A stretch of 61,090 bases of DNA from an uncultured Lachnospiraceae bacterium (GTDB taxonomy: Bacteria > Bacillota > Clostridia > Lachnospirales > Lachnospiraceae): the NCBI GenBank assembly GCA_947625775.1, contig CANQPM010000019.1:1-61090 (forward strand), written 5' to 3'. The translations under genes were made by a program, and so were the position numbers. Shown piece by piece: positions 4,623 through 16,155 of the stretch (positions within the stretch are counted from its first letter, which is position 1; each line of letters begins with the position of its first letter). The notes beneath the pieces are model-generated. The model searched no databases, had not been told where the DNA came from, and saw only the letters and a list, made by a program, of their open reading frames with translations.

Positions 4623-6335
4623 ATGAAAAGGAACACTATAAAAAAATTTGGTTTTGCTTTTTTGATTAATTTTCTTTTATTCTTTATGCTGTTGATTTTT
4701 GGACCGTCTGAGATTTTTTTCTCAAATGTCACCGAATTTGACTTTGTATATGGTGAATTTGCAGGATATATGACATTGTTTGCCGCAGCAGGCGCGGTTA
4801 TTTTTTCGCTTGTGTTTTCTCTGCTGCCAGATAAGGCGTACAGGCTGGCAGTGTCTGTTATATTTGCTGTTTCAGTTGGCGGGTATATTCAGGTTATGTT
4901 TTTGAACAAAAATTTGGATTTGCTTGGCGTAAACCCCGAAGGATATAAAATAAGCATGGGAAAGTCTATGGGCAATCTTGTTATTTGGCTTGTTATAATG
5001 CTTGGCGTTCTCATTTTGGCATTTCGTAAGTTGGAGCTTTGGAAAAAGGCAGTTATGTATCTGTCTGTTTTCCTTTTGCTTATACAGGCGGTTGCGTTGA
5101 TTTCGCTGACTGTATCGGCAAAAGAGGAGGCATATGTCTATCAGGAGGGAAGCTGGCATCTTTCGGGTGAGAATCAGTATATGGTTTCTGCCAATAAAAA
5201 TATAATCGTCATAATATTGGACTATTTCAGCAATCAGTATGTTGAGCCTATGCTTGCTGAGTATCCTGATTCTGTGGATTTCCTGCATGATTTTACGTAC
5301 TACAGCAATATGGATTGCGTTTATTTTGGCACATTTCCTTCACTTCCGCATATGCTGACGGGAAATGATGTTGATATGTCATGTGGTGTCAACGAATGGT
5401 GTGAAAAGATTTGGAATAATGAGAAGACAGATAAATTTTATAAAATGCTTTTAAAACAAAATTTTGTTACAAATGTGTACACGCCGGACACAAATATTTT
5501 GTGTGGGCTTAATTCTGCAGAGATTTTGAATGGCAAATTGTCAAATGTAGTAAATTCATCGCAGGAGATAGATATTTTTTATAAGTTGCTTTTTAAGACT
5601 ATGGCTAAAATGTCAAGCTACCGTATGTTTCCTGATATTGTAAAACCGTATTTTTACGCAAACATTGATGAATATTCTAAGATTGTGGAGGTAAAGGATA
5701 ACAGGATAAACCATGAAAATTATGATTTTTATAATGGATTGAAAGAAAATGGATTGTCTGTGGACAGGAGGTCTAATTATTACATTGTTCAGCATCTAAT
5801 GGGTACGCACCTTTATACGACTGACGAATCGGGGAATTATAAAGAAGATTCAACGATTGAGGAAACAGCAAAAGGATGTATGGTAATTGTAGAGGAGTAT
5901 CTAAATCTGTTAAAAGATTTAGGAGTATATGACGACGCCACTATAATTGTTACATCAGACCATGGTGGACCGTATGATTCTCAGGTGATATTTTATATGA
6001 AGGAACCGCAGGAAAAGCATGATGTATCACCTGTCAATACTTCACCGGTTTCGTTCAATGAATTTTTGCCTACTATCGCGGAAATGGCAGGCGTTGATTA
6101 TGCTGAGTATGGTAAGTCAATACATGATTATGGAGAAGGCGAAAAAAGAACTAGAACGGTTTGGATGCGCACGCACAATCCCAATTATCCTGAAGTGCCT
6201 TGCTACACTGGCGATAAAGATGGAGAATCTAATGTATATTTTGGATATACCTATACTGGTGATATAGGGGATCTTTTAACCACAGTAGGGGATGGACCCG
6301 ATCAGATTGTTCCGATGGTAGATTCCTATTTTTAG
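4623..6335 (+). CDS. Membrane-bound alkaline-phosphatase-superfamily transferase/sulfatase-like protein
   Basis: The 570-residue protein has five likely transmembrane segments (about residues 10-27, 48-68, 73-93, 117-134, 143-165) and an extracytoplasmic alkaline-phosphatase-like domain from about 190. Metal and catalytic residues are visible: Asp200 in NIIVIILDYFS, a probable nucleophile Thr237 in GTFPSLPHMLTG, His391/His396 in QHLMGTH, and Asp446-His447 in VTSDHGG. The fold family includes LtaS-type phosphoglycerol and EptA-type phosphoethanolamine transferases and sulfatases. It is paralogous to the gene at 14044-16155: both have a GYIQ-MFLN motif before the fourth segment. In this locus a role in adding or removing a phospho- or phosphono-group on a surface polymer is likely but not proven. 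Confidence 0.82.
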   Translation: MKRNTIKKFGFAFLINFLLFFMLLIFGPSEIFFSNVTEFDFVYGEFAGYMTLFAAAGAVIFSLVFSLLPDKAYRLAVSVIFAVSVGGYIQVMFLNKNLDLLGVNPEGYKISMGKSMGNLVIWLVIMLGVLILAFRKLELWKKAVMYLSVFLLLIQAVALISLTVSAKEEAYVYQEGSWHLSGENQYMVSANKNIIVIILDYFSNQYVEPMLAEYPDSVDFLHDFTYYSNMDCVYFGTFPSLPHMLTGNDVDMSCGVNEWCEKIWNNEKTDKFYKMLLKQNFVTNVYTPDTNILCGLNSAEILNGKLSNVVNSSQEIDIFYKLLFKTMAKMSSYRMFPDIVKPYFYANIDEYSKIVEVKDNRINHENYDFYNGLKENGLSVDRRSNYYIVQHLMGTHLYTTDESGNYKEDSTIEETAKGCMVIVEEYLNLLKDLGVYDDATIIVTSDHGGPYDSQVIFYMKEPQEKHDVSPVNTSPVSFNEFLPTIAEMAGVDYAEYGKSIHDYGEGEKRTRTVWMRTHNPNYPEVPCYTGDKDGESNVYFGYTYTGDIGDLLTTVGDGPDQIVPMVDSYF

Positions 6336-6660: not shown

Positions 6661-8541
6661 ATGGGCGCTGCAGTTGACGCGATAGTAAACGGCTTAGTAT
6701 GGCTTATAAACGCCTGTTATGCCGTCTGCCATAATTATTGGATTGCGATTTTTATATTTACTTTTTTGACAAAGGTTATCCTGCTTCCCCTTTCCATTTG
6801 GGTGCAGAAAAATTCCATCAAGACAGTCCGAATGCAGCCTGAGATGAACCACATAAAGGCGGCGTATATGGGCAATCAGGAGATGATTTCCGAGGAGCAG
6901 TACAAGCTTTTTAAGCGGGAGAAGTACAGCCCGTTTGTGGATTTGATACCGCTGTTTGTCCAGCTTGCGCTGTTGATGGGCGTCGTGGAGGCGGTAAAGC
7001 GCGGGACAACCTTAAACGCTGTGCCTATACAAACTATGGGGCTTACGCTGCTCGTGCCTGTGATTGCGGCAGTGTCGGCCTTTTTGATGTGCTATGTGCA
7101 GAACAAAATAAATGTCCTGCAGGCAGAACAGGGGGCGCTTAACCAGTACGGCACTATGATATTTTCCGTAGGTCTCTCCCTGTATCTTGGATTTTTTGTA
7201 TCAATAGGAGTAGGAATATATTGGAGCTACAGCAACCTGCTTTCCATACTTCAGCTTGTGCTTTTAAACATATGGATAAATCCCAAAAATTATATAGATT
7301 ATGACGCTTTGGAAAAGAGCAAGGAGGAGCTGAAACAGGCGAAACAGTTTATGGCACCCAAAAAGAAGGCGGACAGGAAAAATCCGTACCGCAAAAAGGA
7401 AAAAGCGGATTATAAACGCTTCTTTTCCTCTGGCAGAAAGCGCGTAGTCTTCTATTCGGAGAAAAACGGCTTTTATAAATATTACAAGAATATAATAGAG
7501 GAGATAATACGCAGGACTAATATCGTGGTGCATTATATCACAAGCGATCCGCTTGACGAAGTCTTTAGCCTGGAGAGCGAGCAGTTCAAGCCATATTACA
7601 TTGGCGAGAACCGTTTGATTGTGCTGATGATGAAGCTTGAGACCGACATCTGTGTGATGACCACGCCCGATTTGGAAAATTTTCAGTTAAAACGCTCATA
7701 TGTGAAAAAAGACATTGAGTATATCTATGTGCCGCATGATGTGAACAGTGCAAATTTGTCCTTCCACAAAGACGCGCTTGATCACTTTGATACAATCTAT
7801 ACATCAGGACCGAAAAATAGGGCAGAAATTGCTGAACGGGAGCAAAAATATGGACTGCCATTAAAGACACTTGTCGAATGGGGCTCTTCAGTTATTGATG
7901 ATATGACGGCATCTTATAATAAAATGCTTGTGGAAGAAAATATGCAGACTGATGACAGCCATAAAAAGACAATTTTGATAGCGCCTTCTTGGCAAAAGGA
8001 CAATATATTAGATTCATGCATTGAGCGTATGTTGGACAAGCTTGTGAAGACGGATTATCACATTATTGTAAGACCGCACCCGCAGTATGTGCGCCATTTT
8101 GAGAGTAAGATTGATGCATTGGCAGCTAAGTACAGCACTTATGATGTTGTTTTCCAAAAAGATTTTTCTTCCAATAAGACTGTGTATATGGCGGATTTGC
8201 TTGTAACAGACTGGTCGAGCATCGCATTTGAGTATGCATTTTCAACATTGAAACCTGTACTGTTTATCGATACGCCAATGAAAATTCTTAATCCTGATTA
8301 TCAGGAATTGAAAACCGTGCCAATTGATATAGAACTACGTAATGTAATAGGCATATCTATCAATTTGGAAGATGCAGGGGACAGAATTGCGCCAGCAGTA
8401 GATAAGCTGTTAGGAGACGCGGAATTTTCAAGCGATTCTTTGCAAAAATTAAAAGAGCAGTATATTTATAACATTGGAACAAGCGGTAAGGTGGGCGCAA
8501 AATATATAATTGACCGTTTGGTTAAGCGCTCTGAAAAATAA
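6661..8541 (+). CDS. Fusion of YidC/Oxa1-type insertase with TagB/TagF-like glycerophosphotransferase
   Basis: Residues 1-210 look like the conserved core of YidC/Oxa1 insertases: KVILLPLSIWVQ, a charged hairpin region with MQPE near 58-61, PFVDLIPLFVQLALLMGV at 91-108, and two further helices ending near IWINPKNY. A basic linker (about 215-260, rich in Lys) leads to a domain at about 260-620 resembling CDP-glycerol glycerophosphotransferases, with VPHD at 357-360, RPHPQY at 471-476 and TDWSSIAFEYAF at 516-527. That family polymerises or primes teichoic acids on the cytoplasmic face. No frameshift or stop separates the halves. The insertase part may be a membrane anchor or may help assemble the neighbouring membrane proteins; both ideas are inference. 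Confidence 0.85.
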   Translation: MGAAVDAIVNGLVWLINACYAVCHNYWIAIFIFTFLTKVILLPLSIWVQKNSIKTVRMQPEMNHIKAAYMGNQEMISEEQYKLFKREKYSPFVDLIPLFVQLALLMGVVEAVKRGTTLNAVPIQTMGLTLLVPVIAAVSAFLMCYVQNKINVLQAEQGALNQYGTMIFSVGLSLYLGFFVSIGVGIYWSYSNLLSILQLVLLNIWINPKNYIDYDALEKSKEELKQAKQFMAPKKKADRKNPYRKKEKADYKRFFSSGRKRVVFYSEKNGFYKYYKNIIEEIIRRTNIVVHYITSDPLDEVFSLESEQFKPYYIGENRLIVLMMKLETDICVMTTPDLENFQLKRSYVKKDIEYIYVPHDVNSANLSFHKDALDHFDTIYTSGPKNRAEIAEREQKYGLPLKTLVEWGSSVIDDMTASYNKMLVEENMQTDDSHKKTILIAPSWQKDNILDSCIERMLDKLVKTDYHIIVRPHPQYVRHFESKIDALAAKYSTYDVVFQKDFSSNKTVYMADLLVTDWSSIAFEYAFSTLKPVLFIDTPMKILNPDYQELKTVPIDIELRNVIGISINLEDAGDRIAPAVDKLLGDAEFSSDSLQKLKEQYIYNIGTSGKVGAKYIIDRLVKRSEK

Positions 8542-8560: not shown

Positions 8561-9320
8561 ATGACAAATGGTAAGTGGCATGAAATATGGGAAAAGAGAA
8601 AGGCGGATGAAAAGGAGTTAAAGTCTGGAGATGCGCATAGGGTATTTATGGAACTAAAGCGCATTGCGGGATGGGACTCAGTCAATACCAGGGGGGGGGT
8701 ATGATAAAGTCGAACTCGCGTATGATGAATTTTACTCCCAATATATACAAACTAAGAATGAATTAGAATTTAACGCAACGACGCAAAAAAAGGAAATAAA
8801 AAGCATATTTGAAGTCGGCTGTGGCTGTGGGGCAAATTTATATTTGTTTCAAAGAGATGGAATAAAAGTGGGCGGAATAGATTATTCGTCATCAGAAATT
8901 GAAATTGCAAAGGGAGTATTGGAAGCGCCTAAGGAATTGATTTGTGATGAGGCATCAAATTTATCATATGAGATTATGTATGACGCCATACTTTCAAATA
9001 GTGTTTTTTCATATTTTGATGGATATGATTATGCTTATGAAGTGTTGGAAAAAATGTATAAGAAGGCGGAATATTCAATTGGAATTATAGATATTCATGA
9101 TGCGGACAAAAAAGACGCCTTTATTTCGTATAGGAAACAGGTTATAGAAAATTACGAAGAACGATATAAGGACTTGCCTAAATTTTTCTATGAAAAACAG
9201 TTCTTTTTAAATTTTGCCGAAACACATAATATGAGCATTAGATTTTCAAAGCCGAGCATGAAGGAATATTGGAATAACGATTATGTCTATAATTGTTTTA
9301 TGATAAAAAATGAAATGTAG
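8561..9320 (+). CDS. SAM-dependent methyltransferase, frameshifted at a G9 tract (probably phase-variable, OFF)
   Basis: Translation begins at ATG 8561 behind GGAAGGGAG and runs 47 codons to a TGA at 8702, directly after nine G residues (8691-8699). The methyltransferase body is open in another frame from the tract to 9320. Removing one G (or adding two) joins the halves into a 252-residue protein. The body has a class I methyltransferase motif (SIFEVGCGCGANL) and a later acidic IGGIDYSS-type segment (here VGGIDYSS). The target is unknown; a sugar or phosphonate head group of the surface polymer fits the location. A sequencing error in the tract is the main alternative to slippage. Confidence 0.78.
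8691..8699 (+). repeat. Homopolymeric G9 tract inside the methyltransferase gene
   Basis: Nine consecutive G residues lie between CCA and TATGAT. Reading from ATG 8561 gives AGG GGG GGG GTA TGA; with eight G it would read AGG GGG GGG TAT GAT and stay open. The tract therefore decides whether the methyltransferase is made. Confidence 0.9.
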
Positions 9321-9340: not shown

Positions 9341-10468
9341 ATGGTAAAGAGAAACGTATTATTAAATCCAGGTCCTGCGACAACTACAGATACCGTAAAG
9401 ATGGCGCAGGTTGTGCCGGATATCTGTCCCAGGGAAAAAGAGTTTGTGACGGTTATGCGCGAGATTGACGACGGTCTTTTGAAAATCGTGCATGCCGATC
9501 CCGCTGTGTACGCGGCTGTCTTGTTTTGCGGCTCAGGCACTATAAATATGGATATCTGCCTCAATTCCCTGCTGCCGAAGGACGACAAGAAAATCCTGAT
9601 ACTCAACAACGGCGCATACAGCAGCAGGGCTGTTGAGATATGCGAATATTACGGACTTGCGCATATAAACCTGCAGCTTCCGCTCAATCAGCCTATGGAT
9701 TTGGAGGCAGTTGAAAAGACATTGCAGGAAAACCCTGATGTCGCGCTCGTCTACACCACCCACAACGAAACAGGCACAGGGCTTTTAAACCCTATCCGTG
9801 AGATAGGCGCTATAGCGCATAAGCGCCACGCCCTATTTGTGGTGGACACGACCTCTACTTATGCTATGCGCCCCATAGATATGCAAAAGGACAACATTGA
9901 CTTCTGCATGGCGTCGGCGCAAAAGGGAATAATGGCGATGACGGGACTTTCTTTCATAATAGGAAATAAAGCCGTAATAGAGGCGTCAGCCGAGTACCCC
10001 AAGCGTTCATATTACTGTAATCTTTATATGCAGTATAAATATGCAAAGGAGCACGGCGAGATGCACTTTACCCCGCCAGTACAGGTGATTTATGCGGCAA
10101 GGCAGGCTTTGAAGGAATACTTTGAGGAGGGAGAGACAGCAAAATGGGAACGCCACTTAGGAGTATTCAATGCTATCTGTGACGGGCTGGCAAGGCTGGG
10201 CTTTCGCACCTATATCCCCAAGGAACACTCGTCAGGGCTTGTCGCGGCGGCGCTCTATCCTGATGATGAAAACTGGGATTTTGCCAAAATCCACGACTAT
10301 TGCTATGAGAGAGGCTTTACGATATATCCCGGCAAGGTTGAAAAAATGGGAATGTTCCGCCTCTGTGCGTTGGGAGCGATAACAGCCAAGGACATTGAGG
10401 ACTTTTTTGCGGTTTTTGAGGAAGCGTTAAAAAAATATAATGTGGCAACGCCTGTAAAATATAATTAG
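9341..10468 (+). CDS. phnW: 2-aminoethylphosphonate:pyruvate transaminase-like class V aminotransferase
   Basis: The 375-residue protein matches class V aminotransferases of the PhnW type: LLNPGPATTT at 7-16, a GSGT segment near 64-67, HNETGTGLLNP at 141-151, Asp169 in FVVDTTST, and the PLP lysine Lys195 in ASAQKGIM. PhnW interconverts phosphonoacetaldehyde and 2-aminoethylphosphonate (AEP) using alanine/pyruvate. With PEP mutase and phosphonopyruvate decarboxylase genes nearby, the biosynthetic direction is expected here. It starts at ATG 9341 after GGAG and lies 20 nt past the methyltransferase frame. Confidence 0.85.
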   Translation: MVKRNVLLNPGPATTTDTVKMAQVVPDICPREKEFVTVMREIDDGLLKIVHADPAVYAAVLFCGSGTINMDICLNSLLPKDDKKILILNNGAYSSRAVEICEYYGLAHINLQLPLNQPMDLEAVEKTLQENPDVALVYTTHNETGTGLLNPIREIGAIAHKRHALFVVDTTSTYAMRPIDMQKDNIDFCMASAQKGIMAMTGLSFIIGNKAVIEASAEYPKRSYYCNLYMQYKYAKEHGEMHFTPPVQVIYAARQALKEYFEEGETAKWERHLGVFNAICDGLARLGFRTYIPKEHSSGLVAAALYPDDENWDFAKIHDYCYERGFTIYPGKVEKMGMFRLCALGAITAKDIEDFFAVFEEALKKYNVATPVKYN

Positions 10469-10598
10469 ATAATGAGTATTGGTGTTTTCACGCGGCAGCC
10501 TGTGCTGTGATGCTGCAATGGCTCTGACGGCAGATGAAAAGTCACATTTTTTGATTTTTCATTGTCCTGTTGTGTAAACGCTGGGAATGGAGATTGAT

Positions 10599-11894
10599 AT
10601 GAGGAAAATTTACACTTGCTTTTGCACAGATGTTATCCATGAGGGACACTTGAATATATTAAATGAAGCGAAGAAATACGGTCAGGTTATCGTAGGCGTG
10701 CTGGCAGACGAGGCAATGGTGCGCTACAACCGTTTCCCGACAATTTCACTTGAAGAGCGTATAGATATTGTAAAGGCTACAGGACTTGCGGATAAGGTGA
10801 TGATACAGCAGGATATCATGTATGACGCTGTTTTGAATGAGCTAAAGCCCGATTATGTCATTCACGGCGACAACTGGCAGAACGGACCCGAGAGTGCAAT
10901 CAGGGAAAATGTATTAAACAATCTCAAAAAATACGGCGGGCAGCTCATAGAAGTGCCATATACATACAATGAAAAGGTCAAAAAGATTGACGACCGCATG
11001 AAGGAAAAGCTTGCGATGCCCGAATTTAGGCGTAAGCGCCTGCGCCAGCTGATAAAGCTGCGCCCTATTGTAAAAACGCTTGAAGTACATTCAGGCCTGA
11101 CAGGCTTGATTGCCGAAAAAACTATCGTGGAGAGCAACGGAGAGCTCGACCAGTTTGACGCCATGTGGATTTCAAGCCTGTGCGACTCGACCGCAAAAGG
11201 CAAGCCCGACATAGAGCTCGTCGATATGTCCTCGCGAATCCGCACCATCGACGACGTAATGGACGTGACAACCAAGCCCATTATCCTCGACGGCGACACA
11301 GGCGGTCTGGTAGAGCATTTTGTGTACAATGTACGCACACTGGAACGCATGGGCGTATCAGCGGTAATAATAGAGGACAAAACAGGACTCAAAAAGAACT
11401 CCCTGTTTGGCACAGAGGTAGAGCAGACACAAGACACAATAGAAAACTTCTGTGAAAAAATAAAGGCAGGCAAACAGGCACTACGCACAGACGACTTTAT
11501 GATCATCGCCCGCATAGAGAGCCTAATCTTGGAAAAGCCCATGAACGAGGCGCTTGAGCGCGCATTTGCTTATGTGGAGGCAGGCGCCGACGGCATAATG
11601 ATACACTCGCGCAAAAAACAGCCCGACGAGATTTTAGAGTTCTGCCGCCTATTCAGAGAAAAAAATAAATCCACCCCCATCGTAGTAGTACCAACCTCCT
11701 TCAACAGCATCACAGAGGAGGAGCTTGCCAAGGCAGGAGTAAACATAGTAATCTACGCCAACCAGCTCACAAGAAGCGCCTTCCCCGCAATGCAGGAAAC
11801 AGCAATAGAAATCCTAAAAAACCACAGAGCCCTAGAGGTTGACTCAAAACTAATGCCCTTCAAAGACATAATTCGCCTAATAGATGAATTATAA
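10599..11894 (+). CDS. Cytidylyltransferase-phosphoenolpyruvate mutase fusion
   Basis: I choose ATG 10599 because GGAGA lies at the right distance; an in-frame ATG at 10587 has no such site. The N-terminal 130 residues are a TagD-like nucleotidyltransferase domain (HEGH at 14-17, VIHGDNW near 87-93). Residues about 150-431 are a PEP mutase/isocitrate-lyase barrel with DGDTGG at 231-236 and the diagnostic EDKTGLKKNSLFG at 259-271. PEP mutase makes the C-P bond of phosphonopyruvate from PEP. The attached cytidylyltransferase may activate the final phosphonate or make another CDP-linked precursor such as CDP-glycerol. A 310 nt gap with two palindromes follows. Confidence 0.88.
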   Translation: MRKIYTCFCTDVIHEGHLNILNEAKKYGQVIVGVLADEAMVRYNRFPTISLEERIDIVKATGLADKVMIQQDIMYDAVLNELKPDYVIHGDNWQNGPESAIRENVLNNLKKYGGQLIEVPYTYNEKVKKIDDRMKEKLAMPEFRRKRLRQLIKLRPIVKTLEVHSGLTGLIAEKTIVESNGELDQFDAMWISSLCDSTAKGKPDIELVDMSSRIRTIDDVMDVTTKPIILDGDTGGLVEHFVYNVRTLERMGVSAVIIEDKTGLKKNSLFGTEVEQTQDTIENFCEKIKAGKQALRTDDFMIIARIESLILEKPMNEALERAFAYVEAGADGIMIHSRKKQPDEILEFCRLFREKNKSTPIVVVPTSFNSITEEELAKAGVNIVIYANQLTRSAFPAMQETAIEILKNHRALEVDSKLMPFKDIIRLIDEL

Positions 11895-12204: not shown

Positions 12205-12897
12205 ATGAACGAAACAGCAATCCTAATGGCAGCAGGACTAGGCACAAGAATGCGCCCACTGACCGAAAAAATGCCAAAACCACTGATAAAGGTATTCGGC
12301 AGGCCAATGATAGAAACAGTAATCGAAGGACTTATTTCAAGGCCAGTCGATGAAATATACGTAGTGACAGGATATTTAGGAGAACAGTTTGACTACCTTC
12401 AGCACAAATATCCCATGGTAAAGCTGGTTAATAATAAGGATTACAGAGAGAAAAACAACATTTCCTCCATATACGCGGCAAGAGAAGTCTTGGCAAAAGG
12501 TAACTGTTTTATCTGTGAGTCGGATTTATATGTCGCCGACGCATCAATTTTCCAAAAACCGCTTCCCCAGTCCTGCTACTATGGCAGAATGCAGACAGGC
12601 TATTCAGACGACTGGGTTTTTGACCTGCAGGACGGCAGAATTACACGAGTAGGCAAAGGCGGCACAGACACCTATAACATGGTAGGCATAGCCTATTTCA
12701 AACAAAAGGAAGCGCTCTGCCTCAAAGAACAAATTGAAAAAGCATATGATAAGGAAGAAAACAGCCAGCTTTTCTGGGACGACATAGTGAACCAAAATCT
12801 GGATAAGCTGAATTTAACAATAGAACCCGTAAATGAAGGACAACTGGTTGAGATTGATACAGTAGAGGAGCTGAAAAAAATTAATGAAAGCAGATAA
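12205..12897 (+). CDS. LicC/PntC-like cytidylyltransferase, probable CTP:2-aminoethylphosphonate cytidylyltransferase
   Basis: The 230-residue protein is a single NTP-transferase domain: the nucleotide-binding LMAAGLGTRMRPLT (7-20) and PKPLIKVFGRPMIE (24-37), an acidic CESDLYV near 108, and a C-terminal VEIDTVEEL. The closest functional types are LicC (CTP:phosphocholine) and PntC (CTP:AEP) enzymes. Because AEP is made by the flanking genes, CMP-AEP is the most likely product. Its last 14 nt overlap the start of the decarboxylase gene, which indicates translational coupling. A sugar-phosphate substrate cannot be ruled out from sequence. Confidence 0.8.
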   Translation: MNETAILMAAGLGTRMRPLTEKMPKPLIKVFGRPMIETVIEGLISRPVDEIYVVTGYLGEQFDYLQHKYPMVKLVNNKDYREKNNISSIYAAREVLAKGNCFICESDLYVADASIFQKPLPQSCYYGRMQTGYSDDWVFDLQDGRITRVGKGGTDTYNMVGIAYFKQKEALCLKEQIEKAYDKEENSQLFWDDIVNQNLDKLNLTIEPVNEGQLVEIDTVEELKKINESR

Positions 12898-14005
12898 ACT
12901 GTTAAACCAAATAGAAAATATAGGAATAAAAGTAATCGCAGGCGTGCCCGATTCCACCCTAAAGCAGTTCTGCGACGGACTACAGACACATAAGGGCGCA
13001 TTAAAGCATTACGTGACAGCAAACGAAGGCGCAGCAGTAGGCTTGGCAGTAGGCGCATTTTTAGCCTCAGGCAGCCCCGCCTGCATATACATGCAAAATT
13101 CAGGCATAGGCAACATAGTAAACCCGCTTGCATCCCTTGCAAATGACGACGTCTATGGCATACCAATGCTGTTTATCGTAGGCTGGCGCGGCGAGCCGGG
13201 CGTTAAAGACGAGCCCCAGCACGTTTTTCAAGGCAAAATCACCTGCAAGCTGTTTGACACGCTTGACGTGCCCTATTCTGTTGTAGATAAGAACACAACA
13301 GATGAACAGTGGCAGGAAATATTAACACTCGCTAAAACATACCTTGACAAAAACCTGCAGTTTGCCATTATCGTAAAGAAAGGCACCTTTGAACCCGATA
13401 AAGAATTTGTATGGAAGAACGGTAATACACTTAATCGCGAGACAGTCTTAGGAAAGCTGCTGCAAATAATACCGCGCGAGGCATACATCGTATCAACCAC
13501 AGGCAAAATATCACGCGAGCTGTACGAGCAGAGCAATGCCCAGTTTGGAAACCACGACAATATCTTTATGACAGTAGGCGGCATGGGACACGCTTCAATG
13601 ATTGCCTTCGGCGTCGCGCAGGAGAAAAAGGACAAGACAATAGTGTGCATCGACGGCGACGGGGCAGCCCTTATGCATATGGGCGCGCTGCCGTTTATCG
13701 CGTCACAGGCGCTTGAAAACTTCCGCCATATAGTAATCAACAATCAAGCCCACGAATCAGTAGGCGCGATGCCTACAGGCTGTCAGGAAACAAGCTTTGC
13801 AGAAGTGGCAAAGGCGGCAGGCTACGCATACACAGAGAGGATTACAGATGAGGAAGGCTTAAAGCAGCTTGAAAATAAGCTTGCTGGCATAAAAGGACCT
13901 GCCCTCTATGAAATCATGGTTTCACTCGACTCGCGCAAAGACTTAGGCAGACCAAAAGAGACCGCAAAAGAAAATCGTGACGCGTTTATGAAGAATTTTG
14001 CATAA
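12884..14005 (+). CDS. aepY: Phosphonopyruvate decarboxylase
   Basis: The 373-residue thiamine-diphosphate enzyme has GVPDSTLKQFCDGL at the N-terminus (20-33), a conserved glutamate in the TANEGAAVGLA segment, and the C-terminal ThDP-binding block GDGAALMHMGALPF ending in NNQAHESVGAMPTG. These are hallmarks of phosphonopyruvate decarboxylase, which pulls the unfavourable PEP mutase reaction forward by making phosphonoacetaldehyde. The gene overlaps the cytidylyltransferase gene by 14 nt. Together with PEP mutase and PhnW it completes the path from PEP to AEP. Confidence 0.92.
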   Translation: MKADKLLNQIENIGIKVIAGVPDSTLKQFCDGLQTHKGALKHYVTANEGAAVGLAVGAFLASGSPACIYMQNSGIGNIVNPLASLANDDVYGIPMLFIVGWRGEPGVKDEPQHVFQGKITCKLFDTLDVPYSVVDKNTTDEQWQEILTLAKTYLDKNLQFAIIVKKGTFEPDKEFVWKNGNTLNRETVLGKLLQIIPREAYIVSTTGKISRELYEQSNAQFGNHDNIFMTVGGMGHASMIAFGVAQEKKDKTIVCIDGDGAALMHMGALPFIASQALENFRHIVINNQAHESVGAMPTGCQETSFAEVAKAAGYAYTERITDEEGLKQLENKLAGIKGPALYEIMVSLDSRKDLGRPKETAKENRDAFMKNFA

Positions 14006-14043
14006 AAACGGTGGGCAAACAGATATTTTGGAGGACAAAGAAA

Positions 14044-16155
14044 ATGCAGAGATATATTTTGATATATATCCTTATGTTTGGAATTTTGTCAAGCGTAATA
14101 TGGGAATGTATAAATAAAAAATATTTGCAGGAAAATAGGAGGGGGGGGGTATTTTTAAAAACGCTCCTGTTTTTCTATGCCAGTCACTACTTTGTAATAT
14201 CGGCGGTTAAGATGTATCTTGGCGATAACAATAATTCGTTGTATGAGAGCTTTTGGGACATAGAGGCTATAACTTATATCCATTATAGTATTCCGCTTAT
14301 ATTAATTGGAATTATTCTTCCGGTATTAATCAAACTTATATTTCGGGCAAATGGAAGACAGTTTATTAGAATATTTGACTGTTCTCTTTTGGTTTTGCTG
14401 CTTTTTGCTTTTATATTAAGATGCCATATTAGTATTATGTGGTATTGCCTTATTTACGCAATATCATTTGTAATAGCGGCAATCGTGGCATTGCTGTATA
14501 AAAAAGATATTGAGTTTATATCCATAAAAGAATATAAAAGCTATATATCGGACGCATTACCTGTTATATGCGCATGTGTTATGACTGTAGGAATATATTT
14601 GCCAAATGAACTGTATCTGAACAATCCAGTGGAGTTTCCTGGCAGCTATTGGGTATTTCTTGTCATAATGATTATTGCAAGCCTGCTTACTGGTGCGGCG
14701 CTTATGCTTATGGGCTTATTGTTTTTGCCTAAACGCATTTATGGGGCGGTGAATATTCTGCTGTCAATTATGGTGCTTATGGGATATATACAGAATATGT
14801 TTTTGAATGGCGAGCTTCAAAGCATGGATGGAGTCGATCAGGTTTGGGAGTTTTCCACAAAGCTTATTAACGCTGTCATATGGATTGTCGTAATCATGGC
14901 CGTTATTCTGATAGGTCATAAAAAGAATGTGATATTCAAGGCATGCAAACTGTTGTGCTGGTATATTGCCCTTATACAGGCTTTTTCGCTTGTATATTTA
15001 GTTATAACAAGTGATTTGAGTACAAAGGAATATGCGGCGTTAACGAATAAAGGGGCGCTTCAGATAGCGGAGAATGACAATGTGCTGGTTTTCGTGCTTG
15101 ACTGTTATGAGGGAGATTGGTTTGAGGAAATTTTAGAGGAGGATGAAGACTTTACGGCGCCATTGGCTGACTTTACTTATTACAGGAATGGCACGGCAAA
15201 ATTCTTCCATACGGCTCAGGCCATTCCATATATGCTGACGGGAGTTGAGTGGGATGAAGCGCACAAAGACGATTACTATGATTATGCTTATGGAACCAGC
15301 GATTTGCTTAAGACAATATATGAACAGGGATTTGATTTAGGAATATATACAGCCCTTAGATATATTCCGGATTCGGTTTATCCTATGCTGCCAAATTATA
15401 ATGATAATATGGAGTATGAATATAATGTCACAAAAGTATTTAAGATGATGGTTAATGCGTCTTTGTACAAAATGTCCCCATTCTGTATGAAGTTAATGCA
15501 CTCTTATTATTCTGGCGACATCGTTAATTATATAGTAGGAAAAGATGCGTGGAATATAGAAAATGACTCACTTTTCCATAATTACCTGGCAAGTGAAGGA
15601 ATAAGTGTTCAGGAAGGACTTGACAAGGCATTTAGGTTTTATCATATGTTTGGCCTGCATGCACCGTTTTGCCTTACGGAAGATTTGAGATATGATGCGA
15701 CAGGACGGGAGAGTTCAATGCACTCGCAGGGGCGCGGCAGCATGAAAATAGTGTATGAGTATCTTGAACAGCTTAAGCAGCTTGGAAAATATGATGATGC
15801 CACGATTATTATAACGGCCGATCATGGTCAAGGTACGATTATGGATGATTCTTCAAGAAAATCAGGCGGACCGGACAGGACATCGCGACCTGTATTCATA
15901 ATAAAGGAGCCGTATGAGCATAATGAAGCAATGGTAATAAGTAATGCTCCCGTTTCCCAGTCGCAATTGGCGCCGACTTATATCAAGGCCGTAGGACTGG
16001 ACTGGGAAAAATACGGAAGAACCTTCAGCGAGATTTCAGAGGACGAGCAGATAGAGCGCAAAGTAGTTGAGTGCAGGACGGCGGATACCATATTCAGCGT
16101 AAACGGTCACGCCGCAGACTTGGACAGCTGGACAATAAGTGATTATATAGAATAA
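14044..16155 (+). CDS. Large membrane alkaline-phosphatase-superfamily protein with in-frame G9 tract (ON)
   Basis: I choose ATG 14044 because GGAGG ends 9 nt upstream; the GTG at 14011 has no site. The 703-residue protein has about ten hydrophobic segments in residues 1-322 and an extracytoplasmic phosphatase-like domain after about 345: Asp353 in VFVLDCYEG, probable nucleophile Thr390 in HTAQAIPYMLTG, His534 and His539, and Asp593-His594 in TADHGQG. It is a longer paralog of the protein at 4623-6335. Nine G residues at 14141-14149 encode residues 33-36; losing or gaining one would abolish the protein. The likely role is transfer or removal of a phospho/phosphono group on a surface polymer. 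Confidence 0.82.
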   Translation: MQRYILIYILMFGILSSVIWECINKKYLQENRRGGVFLKTLLFFYASHYFVISAVKMYLGDNNNSLYESFWDIEAITYIHYSIPLILIGIILPVLIKLIFRANGRQFIRIFDCSLLVLLLFAFILRCHISIMWYCLIYAISFVIAAIVALLYKKDIEFISIKEYKSYISDALPVICACVMTVGIYLPNELYLNNPVEFPGSYWVFLVIMIIASLLTGAALMLMGLLFLPKRIYGAVNILLSIMVLMGYIQNMFLNGELQSMDGVDQVWEFSTKLINAVIWIVVIMAVILIGHKKNVIFKACKLLCWYIALIQAFSLVYLVITSDLSTKEYAALTNKGALQIAENDNVLVFVLDCYEGDWFEEILEEDEDFTAPLADFTYYRNGTAKFFHTAQAIPYMLTGVEWDEAHKDDYYDYAYGTSDLLKTIYEQGFDLGIYTALRYIPDSVYPMLPNYNDNMEYEYNVTKVFKMMVNASLYKMSPFCMKLMHSYYSGDIVNYIVGKDAWNIENDSLFHNYLASEGISVQEGLDKAFRFYHMFGLHAPFCLTEDLRYDATGRESSMHSQGRGSMKIVYEYLEQLKQLGKYDDATIIITADHGQGTIMDDSSRKSGGPDRTSRPVFIIKEPYEHNEAMVISNAPVSQSQLAPTYIKAVGLDWEKYGRTFSEISEDEQIERKVVECRTADTIFSVNGHAADLDSWTISDYIE
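14141..14149 (+). repeat. Homopolymeric G9 tract near the start of the second membrane phosphatase-like gene
   Basis: Nine G residues read AGG AGG GGG GGG GTA in frame. The same local string (AGGGGGGGGGTA) occurs in the methyltransferase gene, where it is out of frame. A one-base change here would hit a stop within about 25 codons. Confidence 0.9.

What the first reader, a model, noticed from the sequence alone, without database searches (positions are those of the whole stretch)
8691..8699. G9 tract switches a methyltransferase gene off
The ORF from 8561 stops right after nine G residues, while the methyltransferase body is open in the shifted frame. Eight (or eleven) G would restore a 252-residue protein. 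Homopolymer-G slippage is a known phase-variation mechanism, mostly in Campylobacter and Neisseria; it is little described in Lachnospiraceae.
Basis: partly seen in the sequence, partly recalled or inferred. Interest (0 to 1): 0.85.

Follow-up and report, generated by a model that had tools for sequence, protein, structure and literature searches.

The report
Slipping G-tract switches surface methyltransferase
A run of nine Gs inside a surface-sugar methyltransferase gene of a gut-type Lachnospiraceae bacterium puts the two halves of the gene out of frame, and it is one of about thirty such runs in this genome, which looks like a genome-wide set of random on/off switches of a kind known mainly from Campylobacter and Neisseria.

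Summary
G9 at 8691-8699 splits a methyltransferase gene: ATG 8561 opens a 47-residue frame that stops at 8702-8704, and the enzyme body is open in another frame to 9320. Tract-free homologs in the same genus carry both pieces in one protein. Both pieces evolve under strong purifying selection, although a sister species has the same G9 and is also out of frame; that fits a reversible switch better than decay. The gene sits in a complete 2-aminoethylphosphonate cluster; a relative has the same cluster without it, so it is an accessory decoration. The tract is not alone: this genome has 29 runs of at least nine G (a Markov model gives about 6), many in glycan-type genes; 11 of 19 tracts with a clear frame on both sides are in frame. 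Five others lie between perfect -35 and -10 boxes, four of these before LysM proteins. One ortholog is off here and on in the sister species. Unexpectedly, tracts share a DNA-level flank, TA-(0-3 nt)-Gn-TA (55 of 86 against 1 of 204 G5-7 runs), in all codon phases. Length variation within one population, hence switching itself, could not be tested.

The parts
8561..8690 (+). 5' part of the methyltransferase gene (ATG start, 43 codons before the tract)
   Evidence: aligns to the first 40 or so residues of intact homologs (39% identity to the one from G020); dN/dS 0.03 in this frame against the sister species (6 synonymous, 1 non-synonymous)
8691..8699 (+). G9 homopolymer, proposed slippage switch
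   Evidence: same G9 in sister species G033
8700..8704 (+). TAT flank and the stop (TGA 8702-8704) that ends the ATG 8561 frame at the present tract length
8694..9320 (+). class I SAM methyltransferase body, frame different from ATG 8561
   Evidence: Methyltransf_11, 12 and 25 above Pfam cut-offs; dN/dS 0.048
4623..6335 (+). alkaline-phosphatase-superfamily protein (Phosphodiest), first gene of the phosphonate cluster as drawn here
6661..8541 (+). YidC/60KD_IMP-like membrane domain fused to CDP-glycerol glycerophosphotransferase-like domain
9341..10468 (+). 2-aminoethylphosphonate aminotransferase (PhnW/AepZ)
   Evidence: TIGR03301 435 bits, cut-off 361
10587..11894 (+). cytidylyltransferase-like domain fused to phosphoenolpyruvate mutase
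   Evidence: TIGR02320 422 bits, cut-off 320
12205..12897 (+). NTP-transferase-like nucleotidyltransferase (proposed activation of the phosphonate, inferred from context)
   Evidence: none of the 25 shown of 37 matches is over its cut-off
12884..14005 (+). phosphonopyruvate decarboxylase
   Evidence: TIGR03297 452 bits, cut-off 313
14011..16155 (+). membrane sulfatase-like protein, second tract gene (frames agree)
   Evidence: (Sulfatase 26.3 bits, cut-off 25)
14141..14149 (+). second G9 tract, frames agree here, in G033 (G9) and in G035 (G10)

Best explanation
The G9 tract is a phase-variation (contingency) switch of an accessory methyltransferase that decorates a 2-aminoethylphosphonate-bearing surface glycopolymer. 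DNA polymerase slippage on the G run is proposed to change its length by one or a few bases, moving the body in or out of frame with the ATG 8561 start; the assembled state is OFF. Shown: the split gene, homology of both halves to one protein, purifying selection on both halves, the phosphonate pathway around it, exact absence of this one gene from an otherwise conserved cluster in a relative, and a genome-wide set of like tracts, many in glycan-type genes and some in promoter spacers. Inferred: slippage in living cells, reversibility, that the product is at the surface, and the acceptor (amino group of 2-aminoethylphosphonate or a sugar of the polymer; no test separates them).
For: Intact tract-free homologs in G020 and G021 begin with a sequence like the 47-residue frame and continue into the same body, beside like neighbour genes (neighbours recognised by eye). 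Both halves constrained against G033: dN/dS 0.032 (43 codons; 6 synonymous, 1 non-synonymous change) and 0.048 (206 codons); the other frames give 1.39 to 2.98, or no synonymous change. G033 has the same G9, also out of frame; with dS about 0.3-0.4 a gene lost in both lineages should not keep such ratios. 29 runs of at least nine G genome-wide against about 6 by a Markov model. Of 87 tracts of at least G8 examined in G000 (31) and G033 (56), 49 have a clear frame on both sides (19 and 30); 27 are in frame and 22 not, more than the one third expected if frame did not matter (p = 0.0014). A gene with a weak mannosyltransferase match is G11/out of frame here and G10/in frame in G033. Tract genes with a Pfam match include methyltransferases, hexapeptide acetyltransferases, a formyltransferase, an epimerase, radical SAM proteins and large membrane proteins. 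G035 has the cluster at 77-95% identity per protein without the methyltransferase (no match in the whole genome).
Against: No read data and no second strain of the species: length variation within a population was not seen. Only 7 of 31 G000 tracts had what I count as an ortholog tract among the fetched G033 stretches; 5 of 7 have equal lengths, including this one. 38 of 87 tracts had no clear frame on both sides, and my criterion can join neighbouring genes. An intact MutS1 gene is present, so high slippage through loss of mutS is not expected. Window-level chance is only modest. At least five tract-gene sequences scanned had no Pfam match, so 'glycan genes' holds for part of the set.
Confidence: 0.82

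Rival explanations
1. Programmed decoding: RNA polymerase or ribosome slips on the G9 run, so a fraction of full-length enzyme is always made and the DNA length is kept constant.
For: G9 and the same out-of-frame offset in two species with both halves constrained; 5 of 7 ortholog tract pairs have equal lengths.
Against: Tract lengths G8-G13 and offsets vary between loci; one ortholog changes between out of frame and in frame; the promoter tracts have no reading frame to restore; 27 of 49 in frame is more than expected if decoding ignored frame.
Confidence: 0.1
2. Assembly or base-calling error: the true tract length keeps the gene in frame.
For: Homopolymers are error-prone; some runs lie in the first bases of contigs in fragmented relatives (for example G026), as expected of read-end poly-G artefacts; one of the 29 own runs is at C15:70-78.
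Against: The same G9 in the genome of another species with flanks 90-93% identical; many tract genes share a functional theme; the promoter architecture is not explained by errors.
Confidence: 0.06
3. Pseudogene: an ordinary frameshift in a decaying gene.
For: The gene is dispensable (absent from the same cluster in G035).
Against: dN/dS 0.03-0.05 in both halves and no other lesion in the body.
Confidence: 0.03

Closest known systems
Poly-G/C contingency loci of Campylobacter jejuni NCTC11168 (29 tracts of seven or more; abstract of PMC4965091 and passages of PMC8437040 seen)
   Same: Similar number of tracts per genome and clustering in surface-glycan loci; phase-variable genes there include transferases of a phosphorus-containing capsule decoration (MeOPN; passages of PMC8437040)
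   Different: Other phylum; here runs counted from nine G, TA on both sides, consensus promoter-spacer tracts, mutS present; switching shown there, not here
Bifidobacterium breve sortase-pilus G-tracts (PMC9187656, abstract and passages seen)
   Same: Gram-positive gut commensal, intragenic G tract, replication-slippage ON/OFF
   Different: Other phylum, two pilus clusters; measured by deep sequencing and in mice
Poly-G promoter spacers of Neisseria (porA, opc; recalled, no call)
   Same: G run between -35 and -10 changes spacing
   Different: Here perfect TTGACA and TATAAT, four of five before LysM proteins; no expression data
2-aminoethylphosphonate biosynthesis clusters (pathway families by NCBIfam)
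   Same: PEP mutase, phosphonopyruvate decarboxylase and PhnW all over curated cut-offs
   Different: Contains two G-tract genes; the methyltransferase reaches no NCBIfam cut-off

Membership tests
Simple-sequence-repeat (poly-G) phase-variable gene | Homopolymer inside the coding sequence, length decides the frame | tested here: met
Simple-sequence-repeat (poly-G) phase-variable gene | Tract far above chance and one of several in the genome | tested here: met
   29 runs of at least nine G against about 6 by a Markov model, and a steep fall-off of shorter runs
Simple-sequence-repeat (poly-G) phase-variable gene | Both parts of the gene kept by selection | tested here: met
Simple-sequence-repeat (poly-G) phase-variable gene | Tract length differs between related genomes | tested here: inconclusive
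   This locus G9/G9; 2 of 7 ortholog pairs differ, one of them between out of frame and in frame
Simple-sequence-repeat (poly-G) phase-variable gene | Length variants within one population and reversible switching | not testable with these tools
   No reads, one genome per species
Simple-sequence-repeat (poly-G) phase-variable gene | Gene acts on a surface structure | tested here: inconclusive
   By context only: phosphonate cluster with glycerophosphotransferase-like and sulfatase-like membrane proteins
Poly-G spacer promoter (the intergenic tracts) | G run lies between a -35 and a -10 box at workable spacing | tested here: met
   Five of TTGACA-9 nt-G10 or G12-TATAAT (19 or 21 bp)
Poly-G spacer promoter (the intergenic tracts) | Expression changes with spacer length | not testable with these tools
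   -
Class I SAM-dependent methyltransferase | Profile match over curated cut-off | tested here: met
   (three Pfam models)
Known named methyltransferase equivalog | NCBIfam equivalog over cut-off | tested here: not met
   best 27 bits against cut-off 103

The most novel reading that the evidence does not exclude
Phase-variable G tracts of this family carry a DNA-level signature, TA-(0-3 nt)-Gn-TA(T), independent of codon phase and shared by coding and promoter tracts. This would mean that the tracts are born or kept hypermutable by a specific process (for example a TA-targeted insertion footprint, or a polymerase/repair context), not simply by chance growth of short G runs, and that poly-G switching with a recognisable mark is scattered over Lachnospiraceae and other gut Clostridia.
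Probability: 0.35. Interest if true: 0.85.

Novelty: new variant of a known kind. Interest (0 to 1): 0.66.

Why it matters
As far as I recall, and from passages of a 2025 review (PMC11868660), phase variation in gut Clostridia is discussed mostly as DNA inversion. A genome with about as many poly-G tracts as Campylobacter jejuni, in a phosphonate cluster, a nonulosonate (sialic-acid-like) locus and before LysM proteins, would mean that isolates and metagenome bins of these commensals are mixtures of surface types, with consequences for phage sensitivity, immune recognition and strain comparison. The flank signature gives a simple way to list candidate switches in assembled genomes and poses a testable question about how such tracts arise.

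Tried and rejected
Alternative start inside the gene: a TTG at 8664 gives a 218-residue frame with the body. Disfavoured: over the first part of the gene that frame has 1 synonymous and 6 non-synonymous differences against G033 (dN/dS 1.39), and I see no Shine-Dalgarno-like sequence before it (by eye).

Codon-level cause of the TAT flank (Gly-Tyr): rejected; for the 37 TAT-flanked tracts with a clear downstream frame the phases are 12, 9 and 16 (14 TAT tracts without a clear frame left out; chi-square p = 0.37), and in the stricter set 9, 7 and 14.

Promoter remnant as the cause of the flank: only 2 of 49 coding tracts are followed by TATAAT.

A+T-rich flanks as the cause: the ten bases on either side are 72% A+T against 55-58% for G5-7 runs; this raises TA somewhat but, by my reckoning, not from about 4% to 73% directly after the tract.

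Insertion at TA with target duplication: no close tract-free site among held loci (123 tract records tried, 4 distant hits, all from one tract held twice), and in one protein family the tract region is not longer than in tract-free homologs. Not excluded, not supported.

Loss of mismatch repair: MutS1 intact here (34 of 38 genus genomes over the cut-off). MutL was not tested.

The solved-structure sequence search gave 6 weak hits, mostly named methyltransferases.

Literature: in the listings no title is about poly-G phase variation in Lachnospiraceae; two searches listed only 20 of 55 and 20 of 107 papers. The one paper with all three terms (PMC6437147; listing and start of abstract seen) is about Campylobacter and AB5 toxins. 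The review PMC11868660 (passages) does not contain the stems Lachnospir or Firmicutes. Phosphonate searches gave nothing useful. Subscription journals and preprints are not held, so absence is weak evidence.

Full report
What is there. The window holds G9 at 8691-8699. ATG 8561, with a Shine-Dalgarno-like sequence before it, opens a frame of 47 residues that stops at 8702-8704. The body of a class I SAM methyltransferase is open in another frame to 9320 (Pfam Methyltransf_11, 12 and 25 over their cut-offs).

One gene, split. A protein search of 60 relatives found matches at E <= 0.001 in 15, of which five are strong: G000 itself, G033 (97% identity), G034 (57%), G020 (50%) and G021 (40%); the rest are E 4e-8 or weaker. 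In G020 and G021 the gene is intact and tract-free. Their proteins start with sequences that align to the 47-residue frame and run on into the same body. By eye, the neighbours are alike: a glycerophosphotransferase-like gene before it in both, PhnW after it in G020, a nucleotidyltransferase after it in G021. In G034 I saw no first part. The nearest relative, G033, has G9 at the same place and is also out of frame. Between window and G033 the first 43 codons have 6 synonymous and 1 non-synonymous change (dN/dS 0.032) and the body 33.7 and 9.3 (0.048); shifted frames give 1.39 to 2.98 or no synonymous change. A gene dead in both lineages would not look like that.

Neighbourhood. The gene lies in a 2-aminoethylphosphonate pathway: phosphoenolpyruvate mutase, phosphonopyruvate decarboxylase and PhnW all exceed their NCBIfam cut-offs, with a YidC-like/glycerophosphotransferase fusion, a nucleotidyltransferase and two alkaline-phosphatase-superfamily proteins. 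In G035 the same cluster is conserved gene by gene (77-95% identity) but the methyltransferase is missing, its neighbours being directly adjacent. So it is an accessory decoration; methylation of the phosphonate amine is my guess from context, not a test.

A genome-wide set. The genome (3.75 Mb, 42 contigs) has 29 runs of at least nine G, up to G13. A first-order Markov model from 400 kb of the genome gives about 6; in those 400 kb runs of length 3 to 7 number 4810, 966, 181, 22 and 1, and A/T runs of at least eight number 30. The 20 stretches were chosen after the places of the 29 runs were known and hold none of them. Ten of the 29 lie within 26 kb of one contig (C6), a locus with NeuB, a UDP-GlcNAc 2-epimerase and many sugar-modifying genes. 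I examined 31 tracts of at least G8 in G000 (the 29 and two G8 runs nearby; G8 was not searched genome-wide) and 56 in G033 (of 58 listed). By a fixed criterion, a clear frame on both sides, 19 of 31 and 30 of 56 are intragenic, and 11 of 19 and 16 of 30 are in frame; 38 of 87 were left unassigned. Together 27 of 49 in frame exceeds one third (p = 0.0014): frame matters, yet nearly half are off. With the same criterion on C runs there are 4 cases, all in G033, at least one of them the other strand of a tract already counted, so the tracts are G in the sense strand almost throughout. Tract genes with Pfam matches: methyltransferases, hexapeptide acetyltransferases (one PglD-like), a formyltransferase, an epimerase, radical SAM/SPASM enzymes, DUF6020 and DUF6056 proteins, YfhO, MBOAT, a cytidylyltransferase/PfkB protein, and one PMT_2 match below its cut-off (21.7 against 26.1 bits); at least five tract-gene sequences had none. 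That these act on surface glycans is inference.

Comparison of orthologous tracts. Seven G000 tracts have what I count as an ortholog tract in the fetched G033 stretches: methyltransferase G9/G9 (both out of frame), sulfatase-like 14141 G9/G9 (both in frame; G10 and in frame in G035), MBOAT G9/G9 (both out, by different offsets), PMT-like G11 out of frame here against G10 in frame in G033, and three promoters G10/G10, G10/G10 (with TATAGT in G033) and G12/G11 (matched on one flank only). The other 24 gave none. In the sulfatase-like family, copies in G033, G019 and G028 are split at G tracts, two of them at about the same protein position.

Promoter tracts. Five intergenic tracts have the form TTGACA-9 nt-G10 or G12-TATAAT, spacing 19 or 21. 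Four stand before paralogous proteins with a LysM domain and, by eye, a signal-like N-terminus; the gene next to the fifth had no Pfam match. The pattern TAC-G7-N0..6-TATAAT occurs in 5 of 38 genus genomes and its reverse in none (of the seven own places one lies in an ORF and one is interrupted); the broader spacer pattern in 16 of 295 genomes of the order, reverse 0 (this genome has the most, 5). In the 124 matches the spacing peaks at 16 and 18-19 with fewer at 17 (23, 10, 23, 30 for 16 to 19): suggestive, not corrected for relatedness.

A flank signature. Of 86 tracts of at least G8 in the two genomes 63 are followed by TA and 51 by TAT, against 9 and 3 of 204 runs of G5-7 and 71 and 31 of 964 runs of G4 in control DNA of G000; TA within five bases before and directly after: 55 of 86 against 1 of 204 and 15 of 964. 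Flanks of the tracts are also richer in A+T (72% against 55-58%). In the genus 154 of 326 runs of at least nine are followed by TAT and 6 preceded by it (sums). In 250 genomes of the family 51 have G9-TAT, 161 places against 20 for the reverse; without the two own-genus genomes 128 against 20, of which one incomplete genome (G488) gives 31 and 6. TAT lies in all three codon phases, so it is a DNA property. Against generality: in Helicobacter sp. 16-1353 the reverse order prevails (8 after, 36 before, of 122 runs), while Streptobacillus notomytis has 19 after and 2 before of 26. Genomes were picked by a promoter pattern containing TATAAT, so their TAT counts are biased. On whether flanks affect slippage the papers differ: the abstract of PMC4965091 reports no influence on slippage products in C. 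jejuni, a passage of PMC7015867 says that flanking sequences influence repeat stability. I have no explanation that I can support.

Verdict. Best explanation: a slippage-type ON/OFF switch of an accessory surface methyltransferase, OFF in this assembly, one of a genome-wide set. The kind is known (Campylobacter, Neisseria, Bifidobacterium pili); the host group, the number of loci, the consensus spacer promoters and the flank signature did not turn up in the listings of my searches, none of which asked for the flank signature or the spacer promoters by name. Switching itself remains to be shown. The mismatch-repair gene mutS is intact.

Noticed in passing
14141-14149: A second G9 tract, in a 714-residue sulfatase-like membrane protein of the same cluster, frames agree; not in the given finding.
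   Followed up: yes
L009 and L010 (G000:C6:104000-137000): Ten runs of at least nine G within 26 kb in a locus with NeuB, UDP-GlcNAc 2-epimerase, radical SAM, formyl- and acetyltransferases.
   Followed up: partly
L003:1544-1553, L011:1522-1533, L013:1524-1533, L015:1525-1534, L019:1528-1537: G10/G12 exactly between TTGACA and TATAAT, four of the five before paralogous LysM proteins.
   Followed up: partly
tracts of G000 and G033 (86 examined): DNA-level flank TA-(0-3 nt)-Gn-TA(T), 55 of 86 tracts against 1 of 204 shorter G runs; opposite orientation of TAT in a Helicobacter.
   Followed up: partly
L052-L170: Poly-G spacer promoter patterns in many Clostridia/Bacilli bins, Saccharibacteria, Ancillula and a Streptobacillus; spacing 17 less frequent than 16 and 18-19.
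   Followed up: partly
6661-8541: YidC/Oxa1-like membrane domain fused to a CDP-glycerol glycerophosphotransferase-like domain; seems an unusual fusion (not searched further).
   Followed up: no
L008:1521-1533: TTGACA-ATA-G13-TAGTAT before a radical SAM/SPASM protein: another possible poly-G spacer promoter.
   Followed up: no
G000:C15:36180-36998, G033:C31, G034:C7: A MutS-like match reported with one TGA and one TAA inside at the same profile place in three species.
   Followed up: no
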